39,616 nt of DNA from Prochloron didemni P4-Papua_New_Guinea. Its GTDB lineage: Bacteria > Cyanobacteriota > Cyanobacteriia > Cyanobacteriales > Prochloraceae. The DNA lies in assembly GCA_000252485.1 (NCBI GenBank), contig JH610643.1, positions 3 through 39,618 on the forward strand, in the 5' to 3' direction. Below the pieces are notes generated by a model. That model searched no databases. It was given only the letters and a program-made list of their open reading frames with translations, and was not told where the DNA came from. Shown here piece after piece: positions 1 to 39,323 of this stretch (within the stretch, counting starts at the first letter, position 1; the number at the start of each line of letters is the position of its first letter). Both the position numbers and the translations under genes were made by a program.

Positions 1-172
1 GAGGGGGGAGCTGTTTAACAACAAGCGACAGAGCCATAAACTAGCGACGCATTCGTGGGTGTCATCACTCAAAAAACGTAGCCCACTAATGGGCTTAGAC
101 TGGTCAGCTATCCTAGGAGGGAGGCACGAAGCCCCGCATCTTCAGAGCGGGGTGCTGACATTACTCTTTTAG
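1..172 (+). mobile_element. Right end of an IS200/IS605-family (TnpB) element, 3' relic
   Basis: The frame starting at base 2 is open from the window edge to a TAG at 170-172 and ends with residues GGRHEAPHLQSGVLTLLF. The DNA contains two consecutive stem-loops: AGCCCA/TGGGCT near 80-96, and CCCCGC/GCGGGG near 133-153 inside GAAGCCCCGC...GCGGGGTGCTGACA. Such a GAAGCCCC-hairpin-(T)CAC/GACA end is typical of TnpB-type right ends, where the 3' end of the omega (re)RNA lies and the guide begins just outside. The body of the gene would lie before the window, so the assignment rests on the end structure only. Whether the open frame is truly the TnpB C-terminus is not certain. Confidence 0.5.
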
Positions 173-33346: not shown

Positions 33347-33511
33347 CTTAGAACTTACGCCGAAACCCGGTTTTTTGAGCTATTAGTAGGGTGCGTTCGT
33401 AACGCACCACACTATCCATAGTTGCTACAGATATAATAGCTATTAGTAGGGTGCGTTCGTAACGCACCACACTATCCATAGTGTCTTCAAGCAAATTTTG
33501 TGTTGAGTTCT
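33347..33511. mobile_element. Degenerate copy of the CAGGACTTACGCA MITE with an internal 44-bp duplication
   Basis: TAGAACTTACGC (33347-33358) and GTGTTGAGTTCTA (33499-33511) are the decayed ends. The right half (GGTGCGTTCGTAACGCACC ... CTTCAAGCAAATTTT) is the inverse of the interior of the element at 18182-18361. A 44-bp block with TAGTAGGGTGCGTTCGTAAC occurs twice (33378-33421 and 33438-33481). It lies directly after the SDR gene. Confidence 0.65.
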
Positions 33512-33625: not shown

Positions 33626-33664
33626 TTGACACTTTTTTTAAAACGTGACAGTATAAGAGTATAC
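33626..33664 (+). promoter_or_regulatory. Promoter with an NtcA-type box before the glutamine riboswitch
   Basis: TTGACA (33626-33631) and TATAAG (33652-33657) are candidate -35/-10 elements with a long 20-bp spacer. GTA-N8-TAC at 33651-33664 (GTATAAGAGTATAC) is a perfect match to the NtcA consensus and covers the -10. NtcA bound there would be expected to repress when nitrogen is scarce, as known for the glutamine-synthetase inactivating-factor genes. Confidence 0.65.
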
Positions 33665-33671
33665 AAAATCC

Positions 33672-33732
33672 ATCGTTCATCTCTAGGAAAAGAGACGGAA
33701 GTAGGGAGTTAATCCCGAAGGAACGCGCCTCC
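33672..33732 (+). promoter_or_regulatory. Glutamine riboswitch (glnA / downstream-peptide RNA motif)
   Basis: The segment has the conserved ATCGTTCA start, a CTCT/AGAG hairpin (33681-33684/33691-33694), the signature GACGGAAGTAGGGA, a GGGA/TCCC hairpin (33704-33707/33713-33716) and CCGAAGGAACG. CGTTC (33674-33678) pairs with GAACG (33721-33725) as P1. These are the hallmarks of the L-glutamine aptamer known from cyanobacteria. Directly downstream, CGCCTC (33726-33731) is perfectly complementary to GAGGCG (33757-33762), which holds the Shine-Dalgarno sequence of the DUF4278 gene. Control is therefore probably at translation initiation. Confidence 0.93.
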
Positions 33733-33768
33733 GAAAAATAACAACTGTCATATTTTGAGGCGAAGACC

Positions 33769-33948
33769 ATGAAACTTTCTTATCGCGGCCAAACTTACGA
33801 CCGCAATCCCTCTGTTACCACAGCAACAGACGTAACAGTTGAAAGCAAGTATCGGGGGGCAAATACTAAAGTGCATATGTTCAAGAACTTGCAAGTTCGC
33901 CGTTCCAATGCTGACTTAACCTATCGCGGCGTTAAGTACCACAAATAA
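33769..33948 (+). CDS. DUF4278 small protein under glutamine riboswitch control
   Basis: This 59-aa basic protein starts MKLSYRGQTY and ends LTYRGVKYHK. The two YRG(x)xY motifs and the length are those of the cyanobacterial DUF4278 family, whose function is not established. GAGG lies 8 nt before the ATG. The gene is preceded by a glutamine riboswitch and an NtcA-type box, so it should be made when glutamine is plentiful. The downstream-peptide class of this riboswitch is known to sit before short ORFs, including the inactivating factor IF17 of glutamine synthetase. The protein is not visibly an IF7/IF17 homologue. A role in nitrogen homeostasis is inferred from the regulation only. Confidence 0.88.
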   Translation: MKLSYRGQTYDRNPSVTTATDVTVESKYRGANTKVHMFKNLQVRRSNADLTYRGVKYHK

Positions 33949-35557: not shown

Positions 35558-36184
35558 TTAATTGTTTATTGTTAATTGTTCATCGTTCAAATCTTCAGGG
35601 CGATCGATATCCGCCAAAGGCTCCAGCACGGAGCAAGATAAACCCAACCCTTTGGCAATCTCAGAAGTTCGAGCAAAAACAGTACCAGTACCCCAACTAA
35701 TATCAGCAAATAACTGGGGAACCAACCGACTCAAACCGATTAAATAATAACCTCCATCCAAGGCAGGACCCAGGACTAAATCCTGGTGTTGGAGAGCGGT
35801 AAAAGCTTCAGTTAAAATAGCAGGATTAATCCCCGGACAGTCTATGCCAATTATAACTACAGCAGTCATGTTTTCCGCAAAAGAGTTAGTGAAAGCCGCC
35901 AGCATGCGATGGCCTAAATCTCCCTCTTCCTGGGGGCGATAAACTAACTGGGAACCCAGCCAATTTTCCATTAACTGCAACTCACCCCCAGCATAATGGA
36001 TTTGTAAAGATAAAGAGGTGGTATTTTCTAGTTTCAATGCCTGGTGCAAGGTATATTCCGTCATTTTCCTCTGGAGAGATGCTGCACCTTCCGGTCCTAA
36101 GGCGGGAATCATTCTTGTTTTGGTTTTTCCCGGTTCCGGATAGCGGGTGAAGATAATTAGTCTTTCTCTCTTATTGGTTTTCAT
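35558..36184 (-). CDS. DUF2064 / TIGR04282 glycosyltransferase-like protein
   Basis: This 208-aa protein of the DUF2064 family has a GT-A type nucleotidyltransferase/glycosyltransferase fold; some members are annotated in arsenosugar biosynthesis. Motifs are FTRYPEPGKTKTRM near the N-terminus, GDLGHRM, VVIIGIDCPG (metal-site Asp) and LGPALDGGYYLIGL. The last eight residues DEQLTINN are encoded by a heptad array, so the natural C-terminus was replaced or extended. The start overlaps the 3' end of the upstream TPR gene by 14 bp, so co-transcription is likely. Confidence 0.87.
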   Translation of the reverse strand: MKTNKRERLIIFTRYPEPGKTKTRMIPALGPEGAASLQRKMTEYTLHQALKLENTTSLSLQIHYAGGELQLMENWLGSQLVYRPQEEGDLGHRMLAAFTNSFAENMTAVVIIGIDCPGINPAILTEAFTALQHQDLVLGPALDGGYYLIGLSRLVPQLFADISWGTGTVFARTSEIAKGLGLSCSVLEPLADIDRPEDLNDEQLTINN

Positions 36185-39100
36185 GTTTGGGTTTTTTATC
36201 TAATTTTTCAGCTATGCGGTTTAAATATTGAAGAATTATTTCGATAAGGTATTCATATTTAAATTCGGTGACAATCTCCAATGCTTGATTTAATAAATCT
36301 CTCGCTTCTATATAGTTTTCTTCTAACAATCCTAATGCTAGGTAGATCATCCCTTGTGAATAGCGATCTCGAAGAGATCCGCGAAGCGGTGCGCCATATT
36401 CGATATCGATTGCCAGAGCTTGCTGGTAGTTACATCTTGCTTCTTCCCATTCTCCTAAATGAAAGGCAAGATTACCCAAATTTTGGTAGGTATTAGCTTG
36501 TTGGTAGCGATCACTATATTCTATATAAATTGCCAGAGCTTGCTGGTAGTGACCTCTAGCCTCTTCCCATTCTTTTAACTTCTGGGCAACCATTCCCAAA
36601 TTGTGGTAAGTAAAAGCTTGTAAATAGCGATCGCCATATTCAATCAAGATTGCCAGAGCTTGCTCGTAGTTTTTCTTTGCTTCTTCCCATTCTTTAAAAT
36701 TGTAGGCAATTATGCCCAAATTTTGGTAGAGAATGACTTGTGGCTGGCGATCTTTATATTCAATGAAGATTGCCAAACTTTGCTGATAATTGTTTCTTGC
36801 TTCTTCTAATTCTTCTAACTGCATGGTAAGATGACCCAAACTGAGGTAGGTCTTTGCTTGTTCGTAGCGATCTTCATATTCAATGAAGATTGCCAAAGCT
36901 TGCTGGTAGTGACCTCTTGCTTCTTCCCATTCTTTTGACTCCTGGGCAACTATTCCCAAATGGTGGTAAATACTTGCTTGTGAATAGCGATCGCTATATT
37001 CAATGAAGATTGCCAGAGCTTGCTGGTAGTATGCTCTTGCTTCTTCCCATTCTCTTAACTCCTCGGCAACTATTCCCAAATTGTGGTAAATACTTGCTTG
37101 TTCGTAGCGATCGCCATATTCAATGAAGATTGCCAGAGCTTGTTGGTAGTGACCTCTTGCTTCTTCCCATTCTCTTAACTTCTGGGCAACTATTCCCAAT
37201 TGGCGGTAAGTACCAGCTTGTTCGTAGCGATCGCCATATTCAATTTTAATTGCCAGGGCTTGCTGATAGTTTTGTCTTGCTTCTTCCCATTGTCTTAACT
37301 GCTGGGCAACTATTCCCAAATTATGGTAGGTATGAGCTTGTTCGTAGCTATCATTATATTCTATATAAATTGCTAGAGCTTGCTGGTATTTGCTTCTAGC
37401 CTCTTCCCATTCTCTTAGCTCAGAGGCAACCCAACCCAACTGATGGTAACTCTTAGCAAATAATAATTGTCTCTGCTTTTCTTGCATATCGCTCAGTTGC
37501 TGAATTAATTCTATTCCTTTCTGATAATAGTCTCTCGCTTGAAGGTAATTCTTTGTCTTCAAATAGCTAGAAGCTAGCCTCGCCAAGGTTAATACAATTT
37601 GTTCTTCTATCTTTCCAGTCTTAATTTCCTCGGGATAAGTCTCAAGTGCTTCATAGACAAACTGAGATAATTCCAGTTTCCTAGGGAGATGGTTAATTAA
37701 TTTTAAGTATTGGTCTAAACAAAAAAATATATTAACTTTTTCTTGCTTATTCAAACAAATAACCAGGGCGTTATAAAGGTTTTCATATTCTAGATGAAAA
37801 AATAATTTCCCCAATTTCCGTTGGTTAGCTTCATTGGATTCCAGATAATCTTCATAAAAATTCGCTAACCGTATATAATGATTCTTAAATCCCTCCTGTA
37901 AAGCCTCCCTAGTAGCCTCATCCAATTCATTTAGCTTTGCCTTCAAAAAATAGGGAAAAATTGGTTGAATTGTTATAAATTCAGTATCATCTTGACTAGC
38001 AGAAAGCAAACCCCAGTTAATTGCTTCTTCAAGAGCTGCATCAAACTTATCAAAAGGGTAATCTTTAAACGGTTCTAGCTTTTTTAGTTCATTCTTATAA
38101 TTATCAATAGCTTTAGCATGATGGAAAATAACCCCACTAAAAGGAGCCAAACACAACAACAACTTTTGAGCATCGGGAGATAAATTACTATGAGAATACT
38201 CCACGCATTTGAGAATACTTCTCGTCTTATCCTCCCCCTGCCGATCCAACTCCAAATCTGCAGCCTGCAACCCCGCCAAAACCTCAGCGGGAGATTGCTT
38301 CTTCAGATTAGCCAGAACCACTTCCATAGCCAAAGGATAGCCAGCCAAAAGCTTCATCAACTTAGTAAAATCCTCGTCTTCCTTTATCCTTTCAATCTTA
38401 TTTCCTGCCACATTTCGTTCCAGAATCTTCTGAGCTAAGACAGTCCTGGCTTCCCGATCCAAGCCCCTTAATTGATAAATATTATCTTTAAAAGTCTTCT
38501 CCTTCAACCAATCCTCACTACCGCGAGAACCCAGCACTATCTTCGTATTTCCTCCCACTAACCTGGCCAAAAAATCCCGAATCTGGTTTCTCTCAGCTTC
38601 CGGCAAAGTATTCTCAATGGCCAATTGCTGTCCCGTCACCGATTCCAAATTATCCAGAATCAAGACGTAAGAATTAGCTCTCAGCAGCTCGATTAACTCT
38701 TCCACTTGAGCGGCCAAAGGAGTGACTTGAAAAATAGCTCGTTCCTCTTCCTCCTCATAAACCTGGGAACCCAGATCAAAAACAATTTGCTCTAAATTCC
38801 AGGCTTTCTCATCGTAACCGAAATAAAATATTTTCCCAGCAAAATTAGTAGCTTGCCACCATTCCCGGAGGTAATTGAGTAAAGTAGTCTTTCCCGTTCC
38901 TCCCATGCCCTGCAACAGCAAAATATTCTGTTTCAGCAAAGCTTTTTCTAGCTTCATAATCTCCAAATCTCGCCCCACAAAGCCGTAGGTAGGAGCAGGA
39001 AACCGATACCGCTGGCTGCGGCGGAGAAAATATTCTTTCTTTTCCTGAAAAGTAAACTGCCGCAAATTGAGATTAACCTGTCCGTTGCCGTAAACTACAG

Positions 39101-39323
39101 GTAACAACCAATCTTCCAAATCGATCGCCTGATTAAAATAAGCCCCCCTGCTTTTTTGCTGATAAAGTTCTTTCCGGGACAGTCTAATGGCTGTAGCTAA
39201 CTGTTCCTTAGCAAATAAATGCCCGTACAGCTCTTCCATCATCAAAACTGCAGCAGAAACAGTCACGGAATAACCCATAGCTACCACCATTTGCATACCT
39301 GCAGCCAGGAGTTGACTCCCCAC
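36171..39323 (-). CDS. CHAT (C-terminal part)-NB-ARC-TPR protein, 5'-truncated
   Basis: The 1050-aa frame has three parts. Residues 1-80 are the end of a CHAT protease domain (GSQLLAAGMQMVVAMGYSV, AYFNQAIDLEDWLLPVVY). An NB-ARC/STAND ATPase follows with P-loop GMGGTGKTT (139-147), Walker B LILDNLE (221-227), LGSRG and GYPLA (328-332). At least nine 40-residue TPRs (WEEARxxYQQALAIxIEY) form the C-terminal third. Upstream of the GTG the same frame continues through VCILNACQSG, the CHAT catalytic-cysteine motif, to about 39414, and then enters a heptad repeat with no start codon. The N-terminal half of CHAT, with its catalytic histidine, is missing. Related STAND proteins act in defence or programmed cell death. 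Confidence 0.88.
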   Translation of the reverse strand: MGSQLLAAGMQMVVAMGYSVTVSAAVLMMEELYGHLFAKEQLATAIRLSRKELYQQKSRGAYFNQAIDLEDWLLPVVYGNGQVNLNLRQFTFQEKKEYFLRRSQRYRFPAPTYGFVGRDLEIMKLEKALLKQNILLLQGMGGTGKTTLLNYLREWWQATNFAGKIFYFGYDEKAWNLEQIVFDLGSQVYEEEEERAIFQVTPLAAQVEELIELLRANSYVLILDNLESVTGQQLAIENTLPEAERNQIRDFLARLVGGNTKIVLGSRGSEDWLKEKTFKDNIYQLRGLDREARTVLAQKILERNVAGNKIERIKEDEDFTKLMKLLAGYPLAMEVVLANLKKQSPAEVLAGLQAADLELDRQGEDKTRSILKCVEYSHSNLSPDAQKLLLCLAPFSGVIFHHAKAIDNYKNELKKLEPFKDYPFDKFDAALEEAINWGLLSASQDDTEFITIQPIFPYFLKAKLNELDEATREALQEGFKNHYIRLANFYEDYLESNEANQRKLGKLFFHLEYENLYNALVICLNKQEKVNIFFCLDQYLKLINHLPRKLELSQFVYEALETYPEEIKTGKIEEQIVLTLARLASSYLKTKNYLQARDYYQKGIELIQQLSDMQEKQRQLLFAKSYHQLGWVASELREWEEARSKYQQALAIYIEYNDSYEQAHTYHNLGIVAQQLRQWEEARQNYQQALAIKIEYGDRYEQAGTYRQLGIVAQKLREWEEARGHYQQALAIFIEYGDRYEQASIYHNLGIVAEELREWEEARAYYQQALAIFIEYSDRYSQASIYHHLGIVAQESKEWEEARGHYQQALAIFIEYEDRYEQAKTYLSLGHLTMQLEELEEARNNYQQSLAIFIEYKDRQPQVILYQNLGIIAYNFKEWEEAKKNYEQALAILIEYGDRYLQAFTYHNLGMVAQKLKEWEEARGHYQQALAIYIEYSDRYQQANTYQNLGNLAFHLGEWEEARCNYQQALAIDIEYGAPLRGSLRDRYSQGMIYLALGLLEENYIEARDLLNQALEIVTEFKYEYLIEIILQYLNRIAEKLDKKPKHENQ
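36369..36392 (-). repeat. 24-bp in-frame palindromic insertion in a TPR
   Basis: Every other TPR unit reads EYxDRYxQ. Here it reads EYG-APLRGSLR-DRYSQ, an extra 8 codons. The insert contains two short hairpins (GATCTC-GAA-GAGATC, using flanking bases, and CCGC-GAA-GCGG). Its length equals that of the gatB repeat unit. Confidence 0.85.

What the first reader, a model, noticed from the sequence alone, without database searches (positions are those of the whole stretch)
33626..33948. NtcA box plus glutamine riboswitch plus DUF4278: a candidate new nitrogen-status effector
A perfect GTA-N8-TAC box overlapping the -10, a textbook glutamine aptamer and a 59-aa basic DUF4278 ORF lie within 325 bp. 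Known precedent: the cyanobacterial glutamine-synthetase inactivating factor IF17 is NtcA-repressed and glutamine-riboswitch-activated. DUF4278 is a different, uncharacterised family. The same logic implies a protein made when glutamine is high, possibly an inhibitor or adaptor in nitrogen assimilation. Presence of the elements is seen in sequence; the function is inference.
Basis: partly seen in the sequence, partly recalled or inferred. Interest (0 to 1): 0.85.

Follow-up and report, generated by a model that had tools for sequence, protein, structure and literature searches.

The report
Glutamine-switched stand-alone DUF4278 protein gene
A cyanobacterial gene for a tiny protein carries two nitrogen sensors in front of it, a repressor site and a glutamine-sensing RNA; both are real, but this arrangement is already known, and the protein matches the front half of a known glutamine synthetase inhibitor, so what remains open is what this half does on its own.

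Summary
The box alone is not above chance. Its position is: 42 of 100 aptamer loci have one there, about 0.4 expected. The start site shows a conserved anti-SD/SD hairpin with covariation.

DUF4278 is IF17's own N-terminal half, not a separate family, and the aptamer-DUF4278 link was published in 2018, including a stand-alone case in Prochlorococcus. This is a new member of a known kind. It is not IF17: the inhibitory C-terminal half is absent.

New here: DUF4278 behaves as a module, fused to IF7-like, PirA-like and two-TM membrane segments. Stand-alone copies recur in many genera and sit directly upstream of DUF4278-PirA genes in seven genomes. The genome's only two glutamine riboswitches control this gene and a two-TM protein; relatives of the two are fused in eight other genomes. 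Best guess: a nitrogen-excess accessory subunit acting in trans on PirA/IF7-type effectors, possibly at the membrane. Function is untested.

The parts
33626..33631 (+). TTGACA, -35-like hexamer
   Evidence: Read from sequence; 20 nt from the -10-like hexamer, not called by the consensus scan; weak
33651..33664 (+). NtcA box GTATAAGAGTATAC (GTA-N8-TAC)
   Evidence: Exact match; same position relative to the aptamer in 42 of 100 related loci, 0.4 expected
33652..33657 (+). TATAAG, -10-like hexamer inside the NtcA box
   Evidence: Read from sequence; inferred
33672..33729 (+). Type 1 glutamine riboswitch aptamer (RF01739)
   Evidence: cmscan 61.1 bits, E 3e-11, full length
33674..33678 (+). P1 helix, 5' strand CGUUC
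   Evidence: cmscan alignment
33721..33725 (+). P1 helix, 3' strand GAACG
   Evidence: cmscan alignment
33726..33731 (+). Anti-Shine-Dalgarno CGCCUC, directly after P1
   Evidence: Pairs with 33757-33762 in the fold; pairing runs and covariation across loci
33757..33762 (+). Shine-Dalgarno GAGGCG, predicted paired with 33726-33731
33769..33948 (+). 59-aa stand-alone DUF4278 protein (PF14105)
   Evidence: hmmscan 58.7 bits; clade of stand-alone DUF4278; nothing encoding an IF7 or PirA half downstream

Best explanation
This is a nitrogen-excess gene of the known type 1 glutamine riboswitch-DUF4278 kind. When 2-oxoglutarate is high (nitrogen poor), NtcA sits on the box over the promoter and blocks transcription (inferred from box position and from gifA/gifB/pirA). 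When nitrogen is plentiful the gene is transcribed, and the leader hides its Shine-Dalgarno sequence in a hairpin (CGCCUC with GAGGCG) placed directly after the aptamer's P1 helix. Glutamine binding at P1 opens translation, as shown experimentally for gifB in Synechocystis (the sign here is inferred from homology). The product is only the DUF4278 domain, the part that in IF17 raises stability and improves inhibition of glutamine synthetase. I propose that it acts in trans as an accessory, stabilising or docking subunit for this genome's nitrogen-excess effectors, first the DUF4278-PirA fusion protein (PII/arginine axis) and second IF7A (glutamine synthetase). Regulation: about 0.9 likely. The trans-acting accessory role: about 0.35.
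For: Riboswitch, box and ORF confirmed. Box position conserved. SD hairpin conserved: complementary runs of 6 or more in 53 of 99 leaders against 8.6 in shuffles, and the second pair covaries (G-C 62, A-U 15, G-U 3, A-C 1). Stand-alone DUF4278 (45-67 aa) follows the aptamer in 17 of 74 classified named loci, 16 of them with an exact NtcA box; Spirulinaceae SM2_1_0 has two complete aptamer-plus-ORF units in tandem. DUF4278 is modular: fused to an IF7-like segment, to a PirA-like segment (NF050139 53.4 bits in the own genome) or to a two-TM segment. Stand-alone copies lie directly upstream of DUF4278-PirA in seven genomes, including a same-genus relative. Own-genome gifA and DUF4278-PirA genes also have exact NtcA boxes. 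The N-terminal part of IF17 confers stability, also when added to IF7 (PMC6316151).
Against: No experiment on any stand-alone DUF4278 protein was found, only reporter work on PMM1846's leader. Stand-alone copies also occur in genomes that keep IF17-type and DUF4278-PirA genes (e.g. G164), so supplying a missing half is not a general need. In the window genome the gene is not next to any effector gene. Thermodynamic folding keeps the SD hairpin closed with the aptamer formed (SD unpaired 0.0-0.04 in both states), so the ON switch is not explained by simple competition. The same-genus relative has a stand-alone DUF4278 without the riboswitch.
Confidence: 0.5

Rival explanations
1. The DUF4278 protein is a direct inhibitor of glutamine synthetase, an IF-like peptide in its own right, as suggested for PMM1846 in Prochlorococcus.
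For: Same regulatory logic as gifB; small, basic protein; the review raises this for PMM1846.
Against: The C-terminal IF7-like half carries the inhibition in IF17 and the N-terminal half is dispensable for it. The window ORF has no IF7-like segment and none lies downstream. The genome has a separate full IF7A (110.6 bits).
Confidence: 0.15
2. The protein is the soluble half of a membrane complex: it partners the two-TM small protein controlled by the genome's only other glutamine riboswitch, forming a nitrogen-excess regulator of a membrane process such as ammonium or amino-acid transport.
For: The genome has exactly two RF01739 hits, at this gene and at a 69-aa two-TM ORF. Two-TM and DUF4278 segments are fused in one ORF in eight genomes. 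Two-TM genes follow 18 of 100 riboswitches.
Against: The fused two-TM segments are distant members of the family (weak E-values). The two-TM leaders mostly lack NtcA boxes (1 of 18). Partner and process are unknown.
Confidence: 0.25
3. The gene is a decaying gifB remnant: an IF17 gene that lost its C-terminal half, still regulated but without a function of its own.
For: Outside its own clade its DUF4278 is nearest to IF17-type domains (46% identity); the genome has no IF17.
Against: Stand-alone copies form a supported clade across several families (99/94), recur with leader, box and ORF in 16 named loci, and no C-terminal remnant follows.
Confidence: 0.07
4. The leader works as an OFF switch: glutamine-bound P1 stacks on the SD hairpin and shuts translation.
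For: The SD hairpin abuts P1 and folds equally well with the aptamer formed.
Against: Type 1 (gifB) and type 2 leaders raise expression with glutamine in vivo, and IF17-type leaders in the survey have the same GCGCCUC/GAGGCG platform.
Confidence: 0.08

Closest known systems
gifB / IF17 of Synechocystis PCC 6803 (type 1 glutamine riboswitch, NtcA-repressed)
   Same: Same aptamer class, NtcA repression, SD platform (as seen in the IF17-type leaders surveyed), and the same N-terminal DUF4278 domain
   Different: IF17 is 149 aa and has the IF7-like C-terminal half that inhibits glutamine synthetase; the window protein stops after DUF4278
PMM1846 of Prochlorococcus MED4 (stand-alone DUF4278 with glutamine riboswitch and NtcA motif)
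   Same: About 7 kDa stand-alone DUF4278, glutamine riboswitch in the 5' UTR, NtcA motif in the promoter (PMC6316151)
   Different: PMM1846 belongs to the marine picocyanobacteria, where the review places type 2 (downstream-peptide) riboswitches; the window has type 1 and comes from another group of cyanobacteria
[quoted passage not shown]
   Same: NtcA-repressed small nitrogen-excess protein; in this genome the only PirA found is fused to a DUF4278 domain, and stand-alone DUF4278 genes precede such fusions elsewhere
   Different: The window ORF has no PirA segment; Synechocystis PirA (51 aa) has no DUF4278

Membership tests
Type 1 glutamine riboswitch (RF01739) | Covariance-model score above gathering threshold over the full aptamer | tested here: met
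   61.1 bits against 35, model 1-53
Type 1 glutamine riboswitch (RF01739) | Expression platform at the ribosome-binding site | tested here: met
   CGCCUC/GAGGCG hairpin, conserved and covarying across loci
Type 1 glutamine riboswitch (RF01739) | Binds L-glutamine and raises expression | not testable with these tools
   Needs in-line probing or a reporter; shown for gifB in the literature
NtcA-repressed promoter | GTA-N8-TAC box close to the start site | tested here: met
   Exact box at 33651-33664, at the place conserved in related loci
NtcA-repressed promoter | NtcA binding and repression under nitrogen limitation | not testable with these tools
   Needs gel shift and an ntcA mutant
DUF4278 (PF14105) | Profile match over the domain | tested here: met
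   58.7 bits against 25.3, positions 1-57 of 57
GifB / IF17 | N-terminal DUF4278 moiety | tested here: met
   identity of DUF4278 with the IF17 N-terminus from PMC6316151
GifB / IF17 | C-terminal IF7-homologous GS-inhibiting half | tested here: not met
   ORF ends after the domain; no IF7 or PirA remnant in the next 1 kb
PirA | PirA profile NF050139 | tested here: not met
   No NCBIfam match for the window ORF; the genome's PirA segment is at C466
PMM1846-like stand-alone DUF4278 | DUF4278-only protein behind a glutamine riboswitch with an NtcA motif | tested here: met
   riboswitch type differs (type 1 here)

The most novel reading that the evidence does not exclude
Stand-alone DUF4278 is the separate, glutamine-induced subunit of a modular nitrogen-excess control system: one domain that pairs in trans with PirA-type, IF7-type and two-TM membrane effectors, which are fused to it in other genomes. 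In this genome its membrane partner is the two-TM protein under the second glutamine riboswitch, which would make a glutamine-responsive membrane complex unknown so far.
Probability: 0.2. Interest if true: 0.75.

Novelty: new member of a known kind. Interest (0 to 1): 0.45.

Why it matters
DUF4278 proteins are a main target of cyanobacterial glutamine riboswitches, yet no function is known for the domain on its own. The fusions and gene neighbourhoods found here (IF7, PirA, two-TM membrane segment) give concrete partners to test. They also offer an explanation for the N-terminally extended PirA proteins that the PirA paper left open as possible annotation errors: in this genome and several others the extension is a DUF4278 domain. 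The riboswitch regulon is wider than the GS-inhibitor story: it includes gifA-pirA gene pairs and an unnamed family of two-TM proteins.

Tried and rejected
Bare NtcA motif count in the window as evidence: rejected, 6 found and 4.9 expected.

Fold of the leader as evidence of structure: z-score -0.24, uninformative alone; covariation used instead.

Competition between P1 and the SD hairpin as the switch: not supported by constrained folding. Holding CGCC single-stranded frees the SD only partly, so the coupling stays unexplained.

Decayed IF17 with a C-terminal remnant downstream: tblastn found none.

Structure: AlphaFold2 model of DUF4278 all-beta but weak (pLDDT 69.9, pTM 0.25). Foldseek against PDB gave nothing below E 3. 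A PDB sequence search gave only a weak kinesin hit, E 0.03.

The search for related loci with the stand-alone alignment failed, no conserved stretch; replaced by a DNA pattern scan, which requires a GCGCC 3' end and so misses most two-TM leaders.

Early idea that DUF4278 is PirA: wrong. PirA is a different segment (NF050139).

Klahn et al. 2018 (NAR gky709) is not held, so its survey is cited through the 2018 review.

Classes of downstream genes were assigned by sequence motifs. Profile checks were done on representatives only, so counts by class may be off by a few.

Full report
OBSERVATION. All three elements are present. The glutamine aptamer at 33672-33729 scores 61.1 bits against a gathering score of 35 and covers the full model. 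The 59-aa ORF at 33769-33948 is a full-length DUF4278 domain, 58.7 bits. The box GTATAAGAGTATAC is at 33651-33664. On its own the box is no evidence, because the window has 6 such motifs with 4.9 expected.

COMPARATIVE TEST OF THE LEADER. RF01739 was searched in 291 genomes of the phylum, with matches in 58. 100 loci, including the two of the window's own genome, were taken out and oriented. An exact GTA-N8-TAC ending 2-18 nt before the aptamer is found in 42, with 0.4 expected from the upstream background. The window box is at this place. Distance from aptamer to start codon is mostly 27-55 nt, and most leaders have the same layout: P1 3' strand GAACG, then CGCCUC, then a loop, then GAGGCG and the start codon. 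Complementary runs of 6 or more occur in 53 of 99 leaders against 8.6 in shuffled controls. At the second pair G-C occurs 62 times and A-U 15 times, with G-U 3 and A-C 1. A-U is concentrated in the two-TM class, but L058, L059 and L065 show it too, so more than one change is likely. This supports translational control. Folding with the aptamer forced does not open the SD, so how glutamine opens it is not explained here. The ON direction rests on published work with gifB and the type 2 switch.

WHAT DUF4278 IS. [quoted passage not shown] It also reports that the 82-residue N-terminus of IF17 gives stability, can stabilise IF7 when added, and seems to improve GS inactivation, while the C-terminal half is the IF7-homologous inhibitor.

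ARCHITECTURES. Behind the surveyed riboswitches I find DUF4278 + IF7-like, DUF4278 + PirA-like, DUF4278 alone, IF7-like alone, a two-TM family (18 loci), and other small proteins. NCBIfam links the segments: the PirA segment matches NF050139 (80.4 bits on a stand-alone example) and the IF7 segment matches NF052599 weakly, below its cut-off. The own genome has one PirA, as the C-terminal half of a 138-aa DUF4278-PirA protein on C466 (53.4 bits, cut-off 50; ORF), one IF7A on C594 (110.6 bits), and no IF17, since its only two DUF4278 hits are C466 and the window. Exact NtcA boxes precede both effector genes. The C466 gene has no riboswitch.

STAND-ALONE DUF4278. In a pattern scan of named genomes, 17 of 74 classified riboswitch loci encode stand-alone DUF4278 proteins, 16 of them with an exact NtcA box. 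Spirulinaceae SM2_1_0 (L200) carries two complete aptamer-plus-ORF units in tandem, and in SBLK (L266) a second unit starts right after the first; their proteins resemble the window's (41-46% identity; sequences). A tree of 88 domains puts the window in a supported set of 14 rows, 12 of them stand-alone (99/94). Columns are few, so inner order is unsure; other stand-alone copies (L053, L097, L110, L117) have a separate origin. A second kind of stand-alone gene, without riboswitch, lies directly upstream of a DUF4278-PirA gene in seven genomes (L135, L170, L171, L172, L173, L174, L347), including same-genus G292. G292's only glutamine riboswitch is at its two-TM gene, so the riboswitch on the window's DUF4278 gene is not shared across the genus.

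LINK TO THE TWO-TM FAMILY. The own genome has two RF01739 hits: this gene and a 69-aa two-TM ORF on C448 (ORF). The two-TM examples have no significant Pfam or NCBIfam match. In eight genomes (L338-L342, L344-L346) a two-TM segment of this family and a DUF4278 domain form one 140-174 aa ORF. These fused members are distant (weak E-values). That the two genes under glutamine riboswitch control here are relatives of halves fused elsewhere suggests they may work together; this is inference. TM segments were judged by eye from hydrophobicity.

STRUCTURE. AlphaFold2 gives a weak all-beta model (pLDDT 69.9, pTM 0.25) with no convincing PDB neighbour.

MECHANISM. Shown: the elements, their conserved spacing, SD-hairpin covariation, the domain identity, the fusions and the gene neighbourhoods. 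Inferred: NtcA repression, glutamine-dependent translation in this strain, and the role of the protein. Best guess: a nitrogen-excess accessory subunit that stabilises or docks PirA- and IF7-type effectors in trans. Main rival: a soluble partner of the two-TM protein. Direct GS inhibition is less likely because the inhibitory half is missing.

VERDICT. Real and conserved, but a new member of a known kind. Interest lies in the open question of what DUF4278 does, which the fusions and neighbourhoods make testable.

Noticed in passing
Own genome C448:9544-9621 (L005 1045-1122) and 17 related loci: A glutamine riboswitch precedes a 69-aa two-TM protein family without Pfam or NCBIfam match; 18 of 100 riboswitch loci carry it, almost always without an NtcA box. 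Members are fused to DUF4278 in eight genomes.
   Followed up: partly
L046, L055, L066, L068, L072 (also L040, L050, L101): Riboswitch followed by an IF7-like ORF and then a PirA-like ORF, about 200-450 nt after the aptamer: gifA-pirA pairs that would put PirA under glutamine control too.
   Followed up: partly
Own genome C466:2955-3353 (L006, minus strand) and L060, L087, L112, L116, L121, L343: DUF4278-PirA fusion proteins, several behind riboswitches; probably the N-terminally extended PirA versions that PMC8092223 left open as possible false annotations.
   Followed up: partly
L208, L217, L221, L224, L247, L260, L264 (SAR86 and other Gammaproteobacteria): Type 1 glutamine aptamers, often two in tandem, upstream of genes that look like glutamine synthetase or like a porin followed by an ammonium transporter, so this riboswitch is not confined to cyanobacteria.
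   Followed up: partly
L062, L098, L122, L194, L239, L240, L252, L261: Riboswitch-linked 38-53 aa single-TM proteins, often with a CWVL-like motif; no family match in the example tested.
   Followed up: no
L054, L080, L092, L093, L115; and L065, L077: Two further small soluble protein families behind glutamine riboswitches (about 59-64 aa and 93-94 aa), without database match in the examples tested.
   Followed up: no
window 1-159, minus strand: HEARO RNA (RF02033, 88.4 bits), cut by the window edge.
   Followed up: no
window 33380-33483: A stretch of about 40 bp containing TAGCTATTAGTAGGGTGCGTTCGTAACGCACC occurs twice in tandem just upstream of the leader; a similar repeat lies near gifA on C594 (L139).
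   Followed up: no
window 36171-39323, minus strand: 1050-aa ORF that looks like an NTPase followed by many near-identical tetratricopeptide-like repeats.
   Followed up: no
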